In this document: positions 2 to 21,339 of the stretch, piece after piece
Layout of the letters: the number at the start of each line of letters is the position of its first letter
Position numbering within the stretch: position 1 is the stretch's first letter
Origin: Vairimorpha ceranae
Taxonomy: Eukaryota; Microsporidia; Nosematidae
DNA: 27,249 nucleotides
Reading direction: 5' to 3'
Assembly: GCF_000988165.1 (NCBI RefSeq)
Contig: NW_020169350.1
Span: 1-27,249, forward strand
Notes under the pieces: generated by a model
The model's input: the letters and a program-made list of their open reading frames with translations, nothing else
Told to the model about the DNA's origin: nothing
The model's database searches: none
Program-made: the position numbers and the translations under genes

Positions 2-193
2 GCAATGACCATACATAAATCACAAGGACAATCATACGGCCGTGTTGGTATTTACCTTCCAGAACCATTGTTCACACATGGTCAACTGTATGTTGCTTTA
101 AGTAGAGTTAGAAGTAAAGATCAATTAAAGATTGAAATGTCTGCCAATTCGGATAACTGTGTTGACAATATAGTCTACAAAGAGTTATTATAA
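2..193 (+). CDS. Helitron RepHel helicase, C-terminal fragment (cut by window start)
   Basis: This is the last 63 codons of a PIF1-family (superfamily 1B) helicase of the type carried by Helitron rolling-circle transposons. The gene continues to the left of the window, and the reading frame is open to base 2. Visible features are the motif V-like stretch AMTIHKSQGQS and the motif VI stretch GQLYVALSRVRS. The gene ends in NIVYKELL, which resembles the NVVYKEVF ending common in Helitron helicases. In the family, the protein joins an N-terminal HUH Rep nuclease to this helicase and moves the element by rolling-circle replication. The Rep part is not in the window, so only the helicase end is shown. 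The stop is followed within 400 bp by a Helitron-type 3' terminus (544-575), which fits the end of a large element. Confidence in the family is high. Whether the gene is intact cannot be judged here. Confidence 0.88.
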   Translation, partial: AMTIHKSQGQSYGRVGIYLPEPLFTHGQLYVALSRVRSKDQLKIEMSANSDNCVDNIVYKELL

Positions 194-543
194 TAAAAGC
201 TTGGTATGTCATATCTTTAATGTACTACATATAATATGCAGTATATATAAATGAAAAATTTTAAAAACTAAAGAATTCTTTAATAACTAAGATTTCTAAA
301 TACAAGAAAATTACATACACAGAAGTATTTTTTAGAACAACTTTCAGTTCTAAAATGCACAGAAATAATACATTTAATTAAGTATTGAAAAATCATATTT
401 AATAAATTAGTAAGCTATACATATAATTCTTATGTAGCAGTAAAAAAATAATAAAATAAATATTTTAATAAAGAAAAAAAGTTATTAGAACCTGGAAAAC
501 AATTAAACAACATTTAGCCAGGTAACACAATTATAATCTTTAG

Positions 544-575
544 GTCCCGTTTTAAAACGGGACAGCGCAGGCTAG
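544..575 (+). repeat. Helitron 3' terminal hairpin plus CTAG
   Basis: A perfect palindrome GTCCCGTTTTAAAACGGGAC (544-563) is followed by CAGCGCAGG and CTAG (572-575). The same arrangement recurs at the end of each of the following five units. The outermost base pair differs between copies (G-C here, A-T in units 2-4), so the pairing is kept while the sequence changes. Confidence 0.82.
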
Positions 576-920
576 TCTATATATATAAAAAGTTTGAATC
601 TGAACATTTTTTTATTTTTTAACCCTTCTTTTTAAAAAATTTGTAAAATTATTTGTATTTTTTATTTAAAAGCACTAACTACAACCTAGAGATTTTTATA
701 AAGTTGTTAGCCAAAGGATATTACGAAATTTTGTGTATTTTTCTTTATTTTTTTTAATTTTTTTGTAATTGTTAAATGGTGACTATTGCAAATTTTACTT
801 TACAATGTAAGACACTTTGTACTTTAAACAATGCGCACAAGCCTAAAGACATGTTTCACAATTAAACATAAGACTATTATTTATTTATAATACCGTTTCA
901 AACGGGATAGAGTAGGCTAG
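576..920 (+). mobile_element. Non-autonomous Helitron unit 1
   Basis: 345 bp, from TCTATATATA to CTAG at 917-920. The 3' hairpin (about 891-908) has one mismatch (ACC in place of CCC). The interior is AT-rich and differs from units 2-5, so this is either an older copy or a different subfamily with the same ends. Confidence 0.78.
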
Positions 921-1258
921 TCAATATATATAAAAAGTTTGAATCTGAACATTTTTTTATTTTTTAACCCTTCTTTTTTAGAAATTTGGAAAATTCTTAT
1001 TATTTTTGTAAAAAACGAAAAGCATCATTTTAGGGTTTATTTCTCTAAGCACGAAACGGTGGGTTTTGTGCATTTTCCCTTGCTTTTATTTAGTTATATA
1101 AATCTTATACGAAGCGTCTATAGCAAATTTTAATTTATAATAAAAAAGGTAATTTGTAATATAAAATAATAAGTACAGGCATAAAGCTGCATCATACACA
1201 ACAAATGTAAGAACACACATTATTTTGATCCCGTTTTAAACGGGATAGCGTTAGCTAG
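921..1258 (+). mobile_element. Non-autonomous Helitron unit 2
   Basis: 338 bp, from TCAATATATA to CTAG at 1255-1258. The hairpin at 1228-1246 has 9-bp arms (ATCCCGTTT/AAACGGGAT) around one central T. The interior holds the shared block around CTCTAAGCACGAAACGGTG and TCTATAGCAAATTTTAATTT, which is also seen in units 3-5. Confidence 0.82.
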
Positions 1259-1601
1259 TCATCAATATATATAAAAAGTTAGAATCTGAGCATTAATTTA
1301 TTTTTAAGCCCTTCTTTTTTAACACTATAACATTCCTATTATCTTTTAAATACGAGTAGCATAAGTGTTAGGTTTATTTCTCTAAGCGCGAAATAATGTT
1401 TTTGTGCGTTTTCTCTTGCATTTATTTATAAATATTAATCTTATACAAGGTGTTTATAGCAAATTTTAATTTATCATAAAAAGGACAATTTATAATTAAA
1501 AATAATTAGTACATACACAAAGGCACATCATATTTATTAAAAATAAAGAGCACACAATATATTTGTGATCATCCCGTTTTCAACGGGATAGCGTTGGCCA
1601 G
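1259..1601 (+). mobile_element. Non-autonomous Helitron unit 3
   Basis: 343 bp. The 5' end reads TCATCAATATATA, as if three bases (TCA) had been added or duplicated at the junction. The end is CCAG (1598-1601) instead of CTAG. The hairpin is at 1571-1589 (ATCCCGTT..AACGGGAT). The interior is of the shared type. Confidence 0.8.
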
Positions 1602-1957
1602 TCTATATATATAAAAAGTTTAAATCTAAAAATTTATTTATTTTTTAACCCTTCTTTTTAGAATTTTTTTTAAATTTTTTGTATTTTTTATTAATAACGA
1701 ATAGCATTATTTTAAAGTTTATTTCTCTAACCACAGTACAGTGTTTTCGTGCATTTTCCCTTGCTTTTATTTAGTTATACTAATCTTATACAAGGTGTCT
1801 ATAGTAAATTTATATTTATAATAAAAAGTGCATTTTATTATTTAAAACAATAAAATAAGTACATACACAAAGGCACATCATATACATACATTAAATCCAC
1901 CAAAACAAAGAACATACACTATTTTGATCCCGTTTACAACGGGATAGCACAAGCTAG
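1602..1957 (+). mobile_element. Non-autonomous Helitron unit 4
   Basis: 356 bp, from TCTATATATA to CTAG at 1954-1957. The hairpin at 1927-1945 has 8-bp arms around TAC. This is the longest unit. The interior is of the shared type. Confidence 0.81.
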
Positions 1958-2302
1958 TCAATATATTTAAAAAATTTGAATCTGAACATTTATTTATTTT
2001 TTAACCTTTCTTTTTTTTAAAAATTGTAAAATTCTTATTATTTTTTAAATAAAAGTAGCATAAGTGTTAGATTTTTTTATCTAAGCGCGGAACGGTGTTT
2101 TTGTGCATTTTCCCTCGCTTTTATTTAGTTATATTAATCTTATACGAAGCGTCTATAGCAAATTTTAATTTATAATAAAAAGGGCAATTTGTAATTAAAA
2201 ATAATAAAATAAGTACATACATAAAAGCACATCATATCCATTGAAAAGAAAGAACACACATTAAATTTACGATCCCGTTTTCAACGATATAGCGTGAGCT
2301 AC
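1958..2302 (+). mobile_element. Non-autonomous Helitron unit 5 (array end, decayed terminus)
   Basis: 345 bp, starting TCAATATATT. The hairpin at 2272-2290 has lost pairing on its right arm (AACGATAT where AACGGGAT is expected), and the final tetranucleotide is CTAC (2299-2302) followed by T. It looks like an inactivated right end. Confidence 0.75.
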
Positions 2303-4176
2303 TTATTAAATAAAAACTTTCTAAATAAAAAGTAAGAAAAAATGGGAGGTTATAATAACTTTAGTAATTTGAACAAAAGTCGCTTTAGATAGGATTTGGG
2401 CCAAAACAAATGACAATAAATAAATTTACTAATGATAATATAAGTATGTTGAGGATTACTTTAAGGACGGGCTTATTCTCGTGGGCACGATAGCTTGTAT
2501 ATTCTCTGTAAAAATTTTATAATTACAAACATAACATAATTTTTTCCTAAATAAAATTTTACCTTTGGTTGGTTAATTATGGGAGGAAAACTGCTTTTAC
2601 GTAGGAAAAGGTTTATTCGGCATATGTTTATCTTTTCTTTCTTTAAATAGTTTATGTTTTAATTCGATATAAAACGTCAAACAGACTTTTTACAGTTTCA
2701 GTCTTAAATTGCTTTGTTGGTTACCGACGGTAACATAAAGTTTTTATATTTCCTAAATATTCACTAACTTATAAAAAATTAATTCATCTATAAAGTAAGA
2801 TTTGATTTATTTATTTGTTGATTAATTCTTTTTACAGAAATATTAAGTCGTCAAGTTCTTACTAGCGTTTTTCTTTAGTCACAAGATTTTCAAATTATTT
2901 ATTACAACATTGTATGTTTTTTTTAAAGTAAGGTTAAATAAAATACAGACATTGCCAATAAATGTAATTTAGCGTTTTTACAATCTTTTTCTATAAATTT
3001 AATCATTATTTCGTTTAAATTTTTACTAAATTTTTGTCTTACAAAATTATTAAATATATGTTGTTTTCAAAAACATCTGCTGTAAAAATTTGTAAGTGCA
3101 AATATTATTTTTTCACCAATAACTTTTATAAAAAATTTCTGTGTTATTATTAGCATCAAAGTCTAACCTTATCCATTTATTGTTTTCTATTAACTGTAGA
3201 TCAATAATATTGTATTTTTGTATTGCTTTTAAACAAAAGCTCATGTTCTGTTTTTATAAAATAGCTTCTACAATAAATTTAGTATTAAAAAGCAGTATAG
3301 CTAATATAGATAATTTAATATAAAAAACTAAGCATTTGGTAAAAAAGTACAAATATTAAATACCAATACAATTTAATAAAATTTAGATTTTAAAGATTAT
3401 TTATCAAAATATTTGTTTTATCAATAAAAAAAATATTGAAAAATTAAAAATTGCAATAATAATGTAAGATGCCATTTATACCAAAAATATTAAAATTTAT
3501 TATTACAGATTCTTAAAATGATTAGACAGTTTACACGCGTATTCGTGAATTCATCAAAAAAATATTGCTTGTTTTAACCTTTTAAAAAATAAGTAAGCAG
3601 GAATCTTACCTAAATTTATTTTTACAATGAAGCAAAACATATTTGCCCACATACAACTTTAAAAGCAATAATATATATAAATTTAATAACAATGACCTAA
3701 AAGATAATTCCAATATTTTTACAATTTTTTATGTAAACAAAATAATCTTATTTGCACAAAAGAATACACTAGTGTTCGTTCAAACAAGCAGATATTTTAC
3801 AAAAAAATAAAAAAACATAATTCTGAAATCATATTATTCCTTATATTAATCTATATTAACACATTTGTACATCAAGTTTAAACACTTGAAAATAAATAGG
3901 CACACTTATAAACACATTATAAATTAATTGTTCTTTAAAATATGTTTCTTTCTTAAAATACTAATGTGTGCTTTTACTTGTAAATTTTTATTTAGTTACA
4001 ATTAATAATTTTCAACAGTCATTTTTATAGCATAAAATATTATTAATTACACACCAATTTGTGTTAAACACTAAAATACAGCATTACTTTTAAAATTAAA
4101 TAATGTCAACACAAAGTTACAAACAAAAAAATCGAGGAAACCTCGCGACGATTAGACATTGTATAATATTTTAATA
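2303..4176. other. Gene-free AT-rich stretch
   Basis: No credible gene was found in these 1.9 kb. The only ORF of note (3141-3323) begins with GTG and encodes low-complexity hydrophobic sequence. Positions about 2340-2740 are visibly richer in G and C than the rest and contain a perfect 6-bp hairpin (GTTACC-GAC-GGTAAC, 2720-2734). They could be a decayed element or an RNA gene, but I do not recognise it. Confidence 0.5.
4125..4145 (-). terminator. Hairpin plus T-run 3' of the 4177-5697 gene
   Basis: Read on the minus strand, CGAGG-TTT-CCTCG is followed by A and seven T, starting 31 nt after the stop codon of the gene at 4177-5697. It has the shape of an intrinsic terminator, but in a eukaryote it may instead be a 3'-end processing or stability element, or chance. 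Confidence 0.35.
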
Positions 4177-5697
4177 TTATAAATGAAATCCACTAAAAAT
4201 ATAGTTTAGTAACAAATGTTCATCCTGAACCTTCAAGGTTTTATAATTTTCATGCTTGCAATTCTTGCATGTTTTGTTATGTACTATCTGTAATTTCTTA
4301 TATATTCCTTTATTAATTTTAGCATCATTATTAACTAAATCTTTACATACACTTCTAAATCCATTGCAATCATCAATAGTATCACACATATCGAGCATAG
4401 ATTCATAAATTTCTGTTTCAAATTTACTGTGACTTTTAAAAAAAAATCCACCAGTGTTATTCTTTTTCCATTCGGTGTAAATAAGATTGGCGTGTGCAAC
4501 ACACAAATCACATGTCTCTGTATTAATACATTCTTTACACAACTCATTAATACCTTTAATAATATAAGTAACAATTTCTTCATTGTTTTCCATTACGCGT
4601 ATTTTTTTAATAAAATGCTTAACAATCTTAGATCTTTGCTTTTCACATACCCCTCCTAATTTATGAAATATATCTTGAACTAAATCACAACAAATATGAA
4701 GATCATGTTTATCAATAGCCATGTCCATTACTTCTAGAAGCCTATTAGTCCATAAATCATCAGATGTATGTCTAATTGCTTCAATACAAAGTATAATAAT
4801 CTTTTGATATTCATTAACTATAGAGCTATTGCCTTGTTTATAGATAATCCATCCGTCATTATAATTCTTGCTTCTAATACATTCATCAATCATAGACTTA
4901 TCTAGTAAACAAGATGAATTACATCTATTTTTAATCCATAGTCTTACTTTTTCATTCCAATTAAAAAAATACTCAACTCCTTTTTTCCATGTTTCATAAT
5001 CTTCATTTTCTAAAAATGTTAATCTGGCAATATCTTGTACTTCTTTATTTATAATTTGTAAATCAATAAAACTCTTATTTTTTATATTTTCGCATTTTGC
5101 AGTAAACTCACAATCATCATTAAAAGTTAGTAATATTGCCAGTCTATTAGAAAATAATGAGTGTTTTACATGATTATAGATTTTAAAAAACCTAACATAT
5201 TCCCTTCGCATGTATAAAACAAGTAAAACATATTCAGAAATTTCAGTTGTTGTAACATCCATCTGCGGTGTAACATGCTTGTAATATTTAAAAGTCAAAG
5301 ATTCTATATCTTGCTCACAATTTAATGCATTAATAACACCTTTATAATTCTTTTCACTGCACACTGCTATATCCTCTTTAATCTTCTGATTATTGTAATT
5401 TCCCCTTAATGCCTCACATACAGTCAATATTTCGGGTTCACAAATAAATTTAAGTAAATATTTTTCTATAAGAAATATCTTGTAAAATATTTCAACATCT
5501 CTATTTTTTTCTATATTTGTAGAATGTGAAGTCACACAGGACAGTAAAATTGAATAATTAGTAACCAAATCTTCTAGAGTGTTACCATCTTTCAATTTAC
5601 ATCCTGTGCATTTTTTTATGGCAGTAGAAACTTCTTTTATTAATTCAATATAGTATGAATCTGCATCAACAGCAAGAGAATTTCCGACATCAGACAT
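4177..5697 (-). CDS. Hypothetical PPR-like helical-repeat protein with CxxC pairs
   Basis: I do not recognise a specific orthologue. The 506-residue protein is mostly helical and rich in Cys, Ile, Asn and Lys. Two stretches look like pentatricopeptide-type helix pairs: about residues 268-303 (SMIDECIRSKNYNDGWIIY..) and about 430-465 (YESMLDMCDTIDDCNGF..). Cysteine pairs occur at C30/C33, C387/C390, C396/C399 and C477/C480 and could bind zinc. No signal peptide or membrane segment is evident. The ATG at 5697 is supported by CCCC on the minus strand at 5707-5710, nine bases upstream. PPR proteins normally bind organelle RNA, which would be odd in an organism whose mitochondrion has lost its genome. 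The assignment is therefore only structural, and a generic helical solenoid is equally possible. The gene lies 663 bp downstream of TAF2 on the same strand. Confidence 0.7.
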   Translation of the reverse strand: MSDVGNSLAVDADSYYIELIKEVSTAIKKCTGCKLKDGNTLEDLVTNYSILLSCVTSHSTNIEKNRDVEIFYKIFLIEKYLLKFICEPEILTVCEALRGNYNNQKIKEDIAVCSEKNYKGVINALNCEQDIESLTFKYYKHVTPQMDVTTTEISEYVLLVLYMRREYVRFFKIYNHVKHSLFSNRLAILLTFNDDCEFTAKCENIKNKSFIDLQIINKEVQDIARLTFLENEDYETWKKGVEYFFNWNEKVRLWIKNRCNSSCLLDKSMIDECIRSKNYNDGWIIYKQGNSSIVNEYQKIIILCIEAIRHTSDDLWTNRLLEVMDMAIDKHDLHICCDLVQDIFHKLGGVCEKQRSKIVKHFIKKIRVMENNEEIVTYIIKGINELCKECINTETCDLCVAHANLIYTEWKKNNTGGFFFKSHSKFETEIYESMLDMCDTIDDCNGFRSVCKDLVNNDAKINKGIYKKLQIVHNKTCKNCKHENYKTLKVQDEHLLLNYIFSGFHL

Positions 5698-6184: not shown

Positions 6185-6372
6185 AAAAACTATTAGTGTT
6201 ACTATAAATAGAACATAAAAACTATTAATGTTACTATAAATAAAACATAAAACTATTAATGTTAACTACAAATAGAACATAAAAATTATTTATATTTAAT
6301 TATTTACACAACATAAAAACTATTTATATTTAATTTCTATAACATAAAAACTATTTATATTTAATTATAAAT
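6185..6372. repeat. 32-bp minisatellite at the TAF2 3' end
   Basis: Six imperfect tandem units of 31-34 bp (starts near 6185, 6217, 6249, 6281, 6315 and 6346) follow the pattern AAAAACTATTWATRTTA..AAT..AACAT. Units 1-3 share one variant (GTTACTATAAATA), and units 4-6 share another (TATATTTAATT). The last unit runs into the TAF2 stop codon (6361-6363) and its last codons, which suggests the array grew outward from the gene end or that it sets the C-terminus. Confidence 0.8.
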
Positions 6373-18554: not shown

Positions 18555-18667
18555 AAACAACAATTTCTATTATGCAGAAACAATACTTTTCATTATGAGA
18601 AACAATAATTTCTATTATGCAGAAACAATAATTTCTATTATGCAGAAACAATAATTTTCATTATTCA
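18555..18667. repeat. 23-bp tandem repeat upstream of SEC16
   Basis: Five units of 22-23 bp start near 18555, 18578, 18600, 18623 and 18646, with consensus AAACAATAATTTCTATTATG followed by CAG. Units 3 and 4 are identical. The array ends about 62 bp before the SEC16 ATG in the divergent DEAH-helicase/SEC16 promoter region. It may be a multiplied binding site or a simple minisatellite. Confidence 0.82.
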
Positions 18668-18729: not shown

Positions 18730-21339
18730 ATGCAAAATAACAATGAGACATTTTGGAACATTGAAGATGAAAGTGATGAGGATTTTGAATCATTGATTAA
18801 TGGAACCCAAGAAGAAATTAAAAAGGATGATGAACCGACATTACAAGATGAAATATTAACTTCGGAAAATATGGATTTTTTGTGGTCTGATGACGAGGAA
18901 GAAAATGTATTTAAGATACAAAAGAATAAAACTGTTCATTTTGAAATATCACAAGACAAAAATAATTTAGAACAAAATAATACAAAATTTAATTTTACAA
19001 ATGAAAAAGGGATGTGTGAAGTGAAAAAAACATTTAATGGCGTGATAAGTGAGAATGATGCATTTAATAATGTAGATGGATTTGTAAATAAAAATATTTC
19101 TAATGATGCTACAAATTTCACTGCAAATAATAAGTTGTCAGAAATATTGAAGGCGGAAAATAATAAAAATGGAGATGAAAGGATTTTATCAGAAAAAATT
19201 ATTGCTACGCAGTTAGAACAGATAGTGAATGAAGAACCTTATAAATTACAAAATGTTACACAAGAAAAAATTAAAGAAGATGTATTTAATAAACTATCAA
19301 ATATTGAAAAAATAGAAGAAGATATAAAAAAGTTATCTATCGATGCTAGCAATAATAGCAACTTTGATACAATTCTAACAAGTGAGGAAATTTCTCAAGA
19401 TATCATTCAGGAACAGCATGGAGATTTTGATTTACCTTTTTCGACATCTTTTGAAAATTCCGTGTTAACTGATGGCTGTAAACATCAAAATAATGTTACT
19501 GCTTGCAATAATGAGGATGTTAATTTGGAATCTAGGACATCCAATTTTATAGAAAAAGAAGATAAACAGACAGAAAAAACAAATTTATTGTTTTCTAACA
19601 CGAATATTGACACTAAAGCACTTGTAGAGTCTACAAACACACCCAATGACACTGAACTGGTTAAAAATGGAAAGGGAAATATTAAATGGTCTTCTGCTGA
19701 TCTTACTATTAAAAAGCCTTTAGTGTGCGTTTTTGGTAATAGTGTTTTATCATTGAATTCATCATTTCAAAAGAGATATTTAAAAGATGGAACACAAAAG
19801 GAAGTTGATGTTAACATTTTTAGAAGATTTAAATTGCTACATTTCTTTGAAATTGTTGATGATGAAATAACAGATTTTTTTGAAGGTAAATCTCTTAATT
19901 TAATTCTTCAACTTATTAAGTTAAAGGATATTCATGCAGAGAGTATATGTGAAGTTATTGGTGCTAAACAGGTACAATATTCTTCAAAAACTTTTGTTGA
20001 TACTGAGAAAAGTTACGATATTAATACAGCATTAAATATATCAACGTTTAACAACAGAATGGCGATTGACTATTGTTTAAAAAAAGAAATGTGGATATTA
20101 GCATTACTAATTTCTAAAAATGATCCAAAAATTATTGAAAGAATTTTTTCTGAAATTCTCGATGAAGATATGCGATTTCTGTTTTGTGATAATACATTTA
20201 AAATGAATCAATCTTGGATAAATTATTTTATGCATTTTGCTAATAGCCCAAAATCGCATTTACATACAAAATATATTTTAGAGGTGTTTAAAAATGATTA
20301 TACTGATGGATGTTTGGTGTTGATCTCTTTATTTTTATGTAATATTATTGACTTGAAGGATTACTTTGAATATTTTACACATAGGCATGCTATTTTACAA
20401 ATTTTATTAATAATTCATAAAAAAATTAAAAAAATTTGTGGCATTGATATTTTGATGTATGAGTATATTAACGACACAAAAGAGAGGGATTTAGAAGGTG
20501 TCAAAAAGTTTTATAAATTGTATAAAAAAGAATTTAGAAAAGATTTTCAAATTATTTTAGATGAATGGTTTAAGTTAAACTGGAATTTTGGAATAAAAAA
20601 TGTATTAAATTTTGGAATTTCTAAGATATTAGATATGCCCGAATCTAATGATAAAAATAACATAAATGTTGTATCTACTCATGAACAGAAAAAAAATATA
20701 AAAAAATCTAATGAGTATATTTGTAATGTTAGTGATCAAAATGCTCATTTAAATTCTCTTGAAAATCAGGAGATTAGTCATAAAGTTGATAGAAGTATAG
20801 GAATCAATGAAAATGTTAATAAGCCTAATAAGGCGGTATATAAAGACAATGAACACAGCAAAAGTTTTGCCGATTTTTTTGATAATGATAGATCACTAAA
20901 TGAAGATAAAATAGAAGATGATACTGCATTGTTTTTATCAAGTTTTAGTTTAAATGAAGATGATAATGTTGATATAAAAAAATCGAAATCAACAGAAAGT
21001 GATGCAGAAAGTAATAGTTCTTTTTTTGGAATTTTTAATTTATTCAAAAAAAAAAGTTATAAAATCGATATTAAGGCATCTGATGATATAAAATATGATC
21101 CTGTTGCTAAAAAATGGATTAGCGGCAGTCAAAGTGTGGCATCAAAACAAGATATTTTAAATAAGCCTCAAATTCCAGTACCAAAAATAAAACCTAATGT
21201 TAATGCTTTTAATACGGCGAATAAGGATTCAGCAGTTAAAAAAAATAGTTTAGATGTAAAAAAGATGTCACTTTATGCTGGCAAGAAAAAGACAAATATC
21301 GTGGAATTTAGTACAATAAAAAAAGACAAAAAAATGTAA
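18730..21339 (+). CDS. SEC16: Sec16-like scaffold of ER exit sites
   Basis: Sec16 organises COPII assembly at ER exit sites. The 869-residue protein has an acidic, Asn-rich, probably disordered N-terminus (1-325). An ancestral-coatomer-like helical domain follows (about 330-600), containing ALNISTFNNRMAIDYCLKKE and MWILALLISKN (about 435-464), which match the Sec16 pattern of a helix pair ending in W..ALLLS. After a disordered acidic stretch comes a motif at about 764-797, FFGIFNLFKKK...KYDPVAKKW, like the conserved C-terminal 'W/F..F...K..(V)YD..LKKW(V)' segment of Sec16 proteins. The tail is Pro/Lys-rich. It is shorter than yeast Sec16 (about 2200 residues). The ATG at 18730 follows CCC by 5 nt. 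The alternative is a Sec31- or Nup-like ACE1 protein, but the C-terminal motif favours Sec16. The gene converges with the LRR gene. Confidence 0.82.
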   Translation: MQNNNETFWNIEDESDEDFESLINGTQEEIKKDDEPTLQDEILTSENMDFLWSDDEEENVFKIQKNKTVHFEISQDKNNLEQNNTKFNFTNEKGMCEVKKTFNGVISENDAFNNVDGFVNKNISNDATNFTANNKLSEILKAENNKNGDERILSEKIIATQLEQIVNEEPYKLQNVTQEKIKEDVFNKLSNIEKIEEDIKKLSIDASNNSNFDTILTSEEISQDIIQEQHGDFDLPFSTSFENSVLTDGCKHQNNVTACNNEDVNLESRTSNFIEKEDKQTEKTNLLFSNTNIDTKALVESTNTPNDTELVKNGKGNIKWSSADLTIKKPLVCVFGNSVLSLNSSFQKRYLKDGTQKEVDVNIFRRFKLLHFFEIVDDEITDFFEGKSLNLILQLIKLKDIHAESICEVIGAKQVQYSSKTFVDTEKSYDINTALNISTFNNRMAIDYCLKKEMWILALLISKNDPKIIERIFSEILDEDMRFLFCDNTFKMNQSWINYFMHFANSPKSHLHTKYILEVFKNDYTDGCLVLISLFLCNIIDLKDYFEYFTHRHAILQILLIIHKKIKKICGIDILMYEYINDTKERDLEGVKKFYKLYKKEFRKDFQIILDEWFKLNWNFGIKNVLNFGISKILDMPESNDKNNINVVSTHEQKKNIKKSNEYICNVSDQNAHLNSLENQEISHKVDRSIGINENVNKPNKAVYKDNEHSKSFADFFDNDRSLNEDKIEDDTALFLSSFSLNEDDNVDIKKSKSTESDAESNSSFFGIFNLFKKKSYKIDIKASDDIKYDPVAKKWISGSQSVASKQDILNKPQIPVPKIKPNVNAFNTANKDSAVKKNSLDVKKMSLYAGKKKTNIVEFSTIKKDKKM

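What the first reader, a model, noticed from the sequence alone, without database searches (positions are those of the whole stretch)
576..2302. Helitrons arrayed head to tail with exact 3'-to-5' junctions
Five units of 338-356 bp follow one another so that the CTAG-type 3' end of one is immediately followed by the TC-AT-run 5' end of the next, with no host bases between (575/576, 920/921, 1258/1259, 1601/1602, 1957/1958). Each has the terminal hairpin 8-10 nt before the CTRR-type end. Known Helitron biology (5' TC, 3' hairpin plus CTRR, insertion before T, rolling-circle intermediates) accounts for this as failed termination or end-to-end insertion. The array may have been read previously as a simple satellite.
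Basis: partly seen in the sequence, partly recalled or inferred. Interest (0 to 1): 0.75.

Follow-up and report, generated by a model that had tools for sequence, protein, structure and literature searches.

The report
Mosaic Helitron arrays built by end-insertion
In this microsporidian-like genome, short Helitron jumping genes sit nose to tail, most likely because separate copies landed one after another on each other's front ends and not because one copy was stuttered into a tandem repeat.

Summary
The array is real: window 576-2302 holds five Helitron units joined 3' end to TC 5' end, directly after the 3' end of a helicase-bearing Helitron (5-575). Single copies elsewhere share these edges, sit between host A and T, and one has three near-empty paralogous sites. 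They are non-autonomous Helitrons, not a satellite. Failed termination is not supported as the general cause: over 71 units, adjacent units are no more alike than others (0.680 vs 0.694), 1 of 31 adjacent pairs are nearest relatives, and 1 of 11 pairs at 90% identity or more is adjacent. Outer 3' ends precede T plus an ATAAAA run (22 of 33, against 3% of A|T sites), which the elements' own 5' end resembles. 48 of 84 5' ends abut a Helitron 3' end, while no nested insertion was detected at 320 comparable sites inside units. I infer that the transposase uses a resident's 5' boundary as a landing site that each insertion rebuilds. Recombination and block copying clearly reshuffle some arrays, and heterodimeric circles remain possible. 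Adjacent unrelated Helitrons are already in print; the genome-wide test of kinship against adjacency is the new part.

The parts
5..193 (+). C-terminal 62 codons plus stop of a PIF1-type helicase, the tail of a protein-coding Helitron cut off by the contig start
   Evidence: helicase matches below the curated cut-offs in this short piece; the same 62 residues are 100% identical in C95, whose 217-aa open frame has Pif1_2B_dom (E 3.7e-17) and a 55% match in Vavraia culicis
440..575 (+). 3' region of that Helitron: 20-nt perfect palindrome (544-563), then CTAG (572-575), followed directly by the first unit
   Evidence: similar 3' regions at C69, C114, C40, C95
576..920 (+). unit 1, 345 bp, subfamily B; 5' TCTATATATATAAAAAG, 3' CTAG
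   Evidence: nearest relatives are in C36, C23 and C37, not in the window
921..1258 (+). unit 2, 338 bp, subfamily A; 5' TCAATATATATAAAAAG, 3' CTAG
   Evidence: groups with C77_10725 and C50_2471 (97/92)
1259..1601 (+). unit 3, 343 bp including one extra TCA at the 5' end, subfamily A; 3' CCAG
1602..1957 (+). unit 4, 356 bp, subfamily A; 3' CTAG
   Evidence: groups with C37_50913 (98/94)
1958..2302 (+). unit 5, 345 bp, subfamily A; 3' CTAC without a usable hairpin
   Evidence: weak sister of unit 3 (94/53)
2303..2316 (+). host target remnant TTATTAAATAAAAA: T plus ATAAAAA at the right edge of the array
   Evidence: related sequence without an array at C13 and C26 (75% and 74% identity) begins at bases 4 and 1 of this flank

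Best explanation
The units are non-autonomous Helitrons of several subfamilies that probably use the transposase of a helicase-bearing Helitron. Most arrays arose by successive separate insertions of different elements at the 5' boundary of a resident one, with some later reshuffling by recombination. A Helitron inserts between A and T and prefers an AT-rich run ending in ATAAAA on the right. Every resident's left edge is host A followed by its own TC-ATATATATAAAAAG, so it presents that kind of site. An insertion there leaves CTAG|TC on its right and a new A|TC on its left, so the site is rebuilt and the array can grow leftward. Shown: mosaic make-up, exact joints, single orientation, the target motif, near-empty sites, and no nested insertion detected. 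Inferred: that the transposase, by binding or nicking the resident terminus, draws the incoming element there. Motif likeness alone is too weak.
For:: 71 units in 40 clusters, 31 adjacent pairs, mean identity 0.680 against 0.694 between arrays (85% of 5000 shuffles reach the observed value); 7 of 31 pairs of one subfamily (shuffled mean 9.3); 51 units of 19 arrays need 42 label changes on the tree, shuffled mean 41.7; 1 of 11 pairs at or above 0.90 identity is adjacent. T at +1 in 33 of 33 outer 3' flanks and ATAAAA at +4 to +16 in 22 of 33, against 3.1% of 32,828 A|T sites; outer 5' flank base A in 25 of 37 by script, 27 of 29 on my hand reading; 5'-end consensus among the top 2-3% of A|T sites; 48 of 84 5' ends abut a 3' end; no opposite-strand end pair within 60 bp; 320 comparable sites inside the 71 units (150 on the same strand), 0 nested patterns; 55 of 71 unit 5' ends pass the same threshold; 3' ends of larger families also stand directly before unit 5' ends (C68, C69, C109, C110, C88); three paralogues of the C107 site without the element.
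Against: Order of insertion could not be shown: the left unit has the shorter end branch in 15 of 30 pairs and the longer in 15. TCA repeats before a TCT-type 5' end, the footprint of landing inside a resident's TCA repeat, occur 4 times, all in arrays, too few for a test. Motif preference alone would put about 0.2% of insertions on known element 5' ends, so an unseen extra step is needed. The 48 of 84 is inflated because neighbours were fetched along with the units searched for. The 31 pairs are not all independent: orders such as B then C recur (C39, C54, C57) and long alignments run across unit borders (C39/C54 1055 bp at 82%, C57/C54 732 bp at 90%), though in C57 and C54 the C units are 0.96 alike and the B units 0.84, which a single block copy would not give. 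The 0.98 pair C50_2471/C77_10725 stays alike about 96 bp into the left neighbours, as recombination would leave it. Some units are chimeric. One oversized unit (C58:28407, 521 bp) is unexplained. Seven junctions lack the final G (CTA|T).
Confidence: 0.55

Rival explanations
1. Rolling-circle read-through: one element is copied past its 3' end several times and the concatemer is inserted as a homogeneous tandem array.
For: Exact CTAG|TC joints are what read-through or a circle gives; tandem arrays are cited as support for rolling circles (PMC5876387, passage). One pair, C36:49405/49739, is adjacent, 0.93 identical and mutually nearest. Four of the five window units are of one subfamily.
Against: 30 of 31 adjacent pairs are not nearest relatives; the pairs at 0.96-0.98 identity lie on different contigs. 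The 3' end of a helicase-bearing Helitron is joined to short units in C68 and C69.
Confidence: 0.07
2. Arrays formed once, by whatever route, and were later scrambled and copied as blocks by ectopic recombination and gene conversion between units.
For: Chimeric units: 3' quarters of B and C units resemble each other. Seven copies of a C unit plus right flank have different left flanks. C36 and C57 share a flank with the break inside a unit, C50_2471 and C77_10725 stay alike into the left neighbours, and long alignments cross unit borders.
Against: Sister adjacency remains in one pair only; many units are solitary with host on both sides; copies at 0.90 or more are adjacent in 1 of 11 pairs. 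Recombination alone does not make the first exact 3'/5' joint.
Confidence: 0.2
3. Heterodimeric intermediates: the 3' end of one element is joined to the 5' end of another during transposition, and the mixed circle inserts as a block.
For: Helitron circles with perfect head-to-tail joints exist in Helraiser (PMC4778049, passage); this also gives mosaics, exact joints and one orientation, and could explain recurring orders such as B then C.
Against: Similar units occur with different neighbours: C50_760 and C54_206 (0.92) are followed by A and B units, C50_2471 and C77_10725 (0.98) follow C and B units; longer arrays would need repeated joining.
Confidence: 0.13
4. Ordinary satellite, or safe-haven clustering in a compact genome.
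For: To a repeat finder the array is a 354-bp tandem repeat.
Against: Dispersed single copies with the same edges, one with near-empty paralogues; exact joints in one orientation and no nested insertion detected despite 320 comparable interior sites.
Confidence: 0.03

Closest known systems
Canonical Helitrons (Helraiser/Helibat1)
   Same: 5' TC, 3' hairpin plus CTAG, insertion at A|T, AT-rich preference strongest on the 3' side (PMC4778049, passages)
   Different: Here the 3'-side preference is a T..ATAAAA run that the element's own 5' end resembles, and 5' ends carry variable TCA/TCT repeats
Tandem centromeric Helitrons of plants (Xiong et al. 2016, known to me only as described in PMC12628747, passages)
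   Same: Head-to-tail Helitron arrays
   Different: Described there as partially decayed, truncated copies, many arrays with several 5' and one 3' end, explained by rolling-circle amplification; here most units have both ends and neighbours are usually of different lineages
Directly adjacent distantly related Helitrons in bat and maize (mentioned in PMC4067079, passage)
   Same: Unrelated Helitrons side by side
   Different: Mentioned in one sentence of the passage seen, which gives no test of kinship against adjacency
FoHeli4 pair in Fusarium and a Metarhizium triple (PMC5148889, passages)
   Different: One case each, Helitron2-type elements; a 2-bp gap in the Fusarium case
Transposon dimers by insertion-site preference in Drosophila (McGurk and Barbash, known to me only as described in PMC12628747, passage)
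   Same: Tandem pairs attributed mainly to insertion-site preference
   Different: The passage speaks of transposable elements in general; here it is Helitrons and the joint is usually exact at the boundary

Membership tests
Helitron (canonical) | 5' terminus TC | tested here: met
   57 of 71 units begin TC at the projected edge; near-empty paralogues of the C107 site lack the TCA repeats, so these belong to the element
Helitron (canonical) | 3' hairpin about 10-12 nt before a CTRR end | tested here: met
   52 of 71 units end CTAG at the projected edge; hairpin at five of six window 3' ends; hairpins were not scored in all 71 units
Helitron (canonical) | Insertion between A and T without target duplication | tested here: met
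   T follows in 33 of 33 outer 3' flanks; A precedes in 25 of 37 by script, 27 of 29 on hand reading; no duplication seen at C107 against three paralogues, which differ by a few bases at the joint
Helitron (canonical) | Partner encoding Rep plus PIF1-type helicase | tested here: inconclusive
   Helicase C-terminus found; no Helitron_like_N match, but the control genomes did not ring either, so absence is not shown; no full-length copy seen
Rolling-circle concatemer array | Neighbouring units are each other's closest relatives | tested here: not met
   1 of 31 adjacent pairs; 42 label changes on the tree against a shuffled mean of 41.7
Satellite DNA | No dispersed single copies with the same edges; homogenised units | tested here: not met
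   Solitary copies with the same edges, near-empty sites; adjacent units average 68% identity

The most novel reading that the evidence does not exclude
A Helitron's 5' boundary is a preferred landing site for other Helitrons of any subfamily because the transposase recognises or nicks it. Each insertion rebuilds the site, so arrays are self-perpetuating, and tandem Helitron arrays are not in themselves evidence for rolling-circle read-through.
Probability: 0.47. Interest if true: 0.65.

Novelty: new variant of a known kind. Interest (0 to 1): 0.5.

Why it matters
Head-to-tail Helitron arrays are cited as support for rolling-circle transposition (PMC5876387, passage). In this genome the same structure is mostly assembled from unrelated copies, so exact tandem joints cannot tell the two routes apart without a kinship test. 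If the 5' boundary is a target, it bears on how Helitron insertion sites are chosen, how coding and non-coding Helitrons become composite, and how satellite-like arrays can start from transposons.

Tried and rejected
Read-through was tested by unit kinship and not borne out as the general cause. Satellite was rejected by single copies and near-empty sites. Motif likeness alone was rejected by the nested-insertion control and by arithmetic. Growth direction from end-branch lengths gave nothing, 15 against 15. Mixed TCA/TCT footprints were suggestive but too few. Joint movement of a C unit with its right flank (seven copies, different left flanks) stays ambiguous: mean identity is 0.81 and 0.89 in the unit's halves but 0.94 in the flank, and C76's 5' half is a different sequence, so recombination explains it as well. 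C104 shares a right flank with C65 from its first base, but its left flank is unrelated. Helitron_like_N gave nothing and its control did not ring. The silkworm paper had no passage under my array terms. Only part of the output was shown (cut), and nothing rests on the rest.

Full report
What is there. The window is contig C68 of a 4.56-Mb, 116-contig AT-rich genome. Its Kae1 protein is closest, among records that name an organism, to Vairimorpha necatrix (87%), so the host is probably a Nosema/Vairimorpha-type microsporidian; this was not tested further. Window 576-2302 holds five units joined without host bases. Four joints are direct (three CTAG|TC, one CCAG|TC); the one at 1258/1259 has an extra TCA. 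The last unit ends CTAC without a usable hairpin. Immediately left, window 5-193 is the tail of a PIF1-type helicase gene, and 440-575 is the 3' region of the Helitron that carries it. So the array is six elements long, the first a coding one cut by the contig start.

Dispersed copies. Unit 576-920 has 89 matches, a lower bound because 40 of 94 candidates were scored. I read 39 further loci and located element ends with profiles built from unit ends: 84 5' ends and 79 3' ends. Copies of C units found later at C48, C64, C72 and C76 are not in these counts. Solitary copies exist with host DNA on both sides, for example C1, C65:971, C74, C84, C87 and C107. Of 34 outer 3' flanks listed, three belong to the coding Helitron; one was dropped because the next unit followed, and the remaining 33 all begin with T. 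The base before the 5' TC, after removing TCA/TCT repeats, was A in 25 of 37 by script. Reading the 37 rows by hand I set aside six that follow another Helitron family's 3' end and two internal or misplaced edges; of the remaining 29, 27 have A (exceptions C87 and C29:49740), and one of the 27 (C50:1798) may itself be internal. The C107 site has three paralogues without the element (C88, C107:13907, C114); they lack the TCA repeats and show no duplication, with differences of a few bases at the joint. The window's right flank has related sequence without an array at C13 and C26, 75% and 74% identical, beginning at bases 4 and 1 of the flank.

Kinship against adjacency. 71 complete units fall in 40 clusters with 31 adjacent pairs. 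Adjacent pairs average 0.680 identity, pairs from different arrays 0.694; 85% of 5000 shuffles reach the observed value. Seven of 31 pairs are of one subfamily, shuffled mean 9.3. On a maximum-likelihood tree of 70 units (one oversized unit left out), 51 units of 19 arrays (two arrays rejoined across an undetected end) need 42 label changes, shuffled mean 41.7, 221 of 300 shuffles as low. Of 11 pairs at or above 0.90 identity one is adjacent. In the window, unit 1 is subfamily B and units 2-5 are subfamily A; unit 2 groups with units of C77 and C50, unit 4 with C37, while units 3 and 5, which are not neighbours, are weak sisters (94/53). The window's five units need 4 changes against a shuffled mean of 4.9, so they cluster slightly (51 of 500 shuffles as low). 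Most arrays are thus mosaics, and read-through of one element cannot be their general cause. One pair (C36:49405/49739, 0.93) may be a true tandem copy.

Limits of that test. The 31 pairs are not all independent. B followed by C recurs in C39, C54 and C57, and alignments run across unit borders, for example C39/C54 over 1055 bp at 82% and C57/C54 over 732 bp at 90%. Simple copying of a whole block does not fit C57 and C54, whose C units are 0.96 alike and B units 0.84. C50_2471 and C77_10725 (0.98) stay alike about 96 bp into their left neighbours, and some units are chimeric, so recombination between arrays is real.

Target. 22 of 33 outer 3' flanks carry ATAAAA at +4 to +16, against 3.1% of 32,828 A|T sites in the fetched loci (binomial 1e-25, overstated because a few flanks are paralogous). 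With 30 flanks after removing paralogues, a weight matrix ranks the element's 5' consensus in the top 2.0% (TCT type) and 3.2% (TCA type) of A|T sites, but only at 23% when an extra TCA precedes it. 55 of 71 unit 5' ends pass the threshold of 3.1.

End-specificity. 48 of 84 5' ends abut a 3' end, and 48 of 78 3' ends with enough sequence are followed by a 5' end; no pair of opposite-strand ends lies within 60 bp. Unit interiors hold 320 sites above the same threshold (150 on the same strand), yet no nested pattern of ends was found; the scan sees only insertions whose ends the profiles recognise, and one oversized unit (C58:28407, 521 bp) is unexplained. With about 1.12 million oriented A|T sites, extrapolated from the fetched loci, and 3.2% at that quality, motif preference alone would place about 0.2% of insertions on the 84 known 5' ends. 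The observed fraction is inflated because neighbours were fetched together with the units searched for and because blocks are duplicated; I judge that this does not account for two orders of magnitude. Other families' 3' ends also stand directly before unit 5' ends. At C109 a CTAG end at 5563 follows a helicase fragment at 5249-5335; that both belong to one element is inference. A 1.7-kb family ends CTTG at C29, C36, C50, C71, C88, C109 and C110 (TTTG at C51), with different 5' sequences following at C110 and C88.

Mechanism. From established Helitron biology (Helraiser cuts between flanking DNA and the 5' TC, and exactly at the 3' end; PMC4778049, passages), a resident's left boundary is A|TC followed by an AT run, a site of the preferred kind that each insertion there rebuilds; its right boundary is G|T, not of that kind. 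Leftward growth by successive insertion therefore obeys the A|T rule at every step. That the transposase draws the incoming element to the boundary is inference. Heterodimeric circles and reshuffling by recombination can also give mosaics, and I could not show the order of insertion.

Literature, seen as passages only: PMC5876387 (arrays as support for rolling circles), PMC4067079 (arrays in bat and silkworm attributed to bypassed termination; distantly related Helitrons sometimes directly adjacent in bat and maize), PMC5148889, PMC12628747, PMC13286980 (AT dinucleotide preference in wheat), PMC5012567 (Helitrons in Nosema listed by amount), PMC12558613 (helitron load in microsporidia). Among the rows that searches listed, no title or abstract start described mosaic Helitron arrays in microsporidia; these lists were cut to 10-20 rows each, and most subscription papers are not in that library.

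Noticed in passing
C29:152705, C48:2217, C64:30454, C72:24817, C76:23746, C108:13067, C11:10333: Seven copies of a C-type unit plus its right flank have different left flanks, six of them alike from the unit's 5' end on (C76's 5' half differs): read-through transposition that took the flank along, or recombination between units.
   Followed up: partly
C54:901, C39:5508, C36:5525, C65:30430, C69:182, C41:43621, C77:11062: Seven junctions read CTA|T: the final G of the left element is missing, which restores an A|T dinucleotide.
   Followed up: no
C29:154799-156479 and 18 other matches: A 1.7-kb repeated block, whole or in part, whose CTTG end stands directly before a short unit at several places; it may be another Helitron family with a short 3' hairpin.
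   Followed up: partly
5' ends in many loci, e.g. C107:802-810, C6:313-327, window 1259-1261: Many element 5' ends begin with variable runs of TCA or TCT; each TCA|TCA boundary is itself an A|T site.
   Followed up: partly
C95 and C114 ends, window start: Contigs break inside the helicase-bearing Helitron, so no full-length copy was seen and its 5' end is unknown.
   Followed up: partly
C107:680-810, C88:17330, C114:12004, C107:13907: A repeated sequence of unknown nature hosts one solitary unit and lies near a coding Helitron end in C114.
   Followed up: no
window 6185-6368 and 18555-18664: Two AT-rich minisatellites with periods of 31-32 and 23 bases, the second shortly upstream of the 869-aa frame at 18730.
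   Followed up: no
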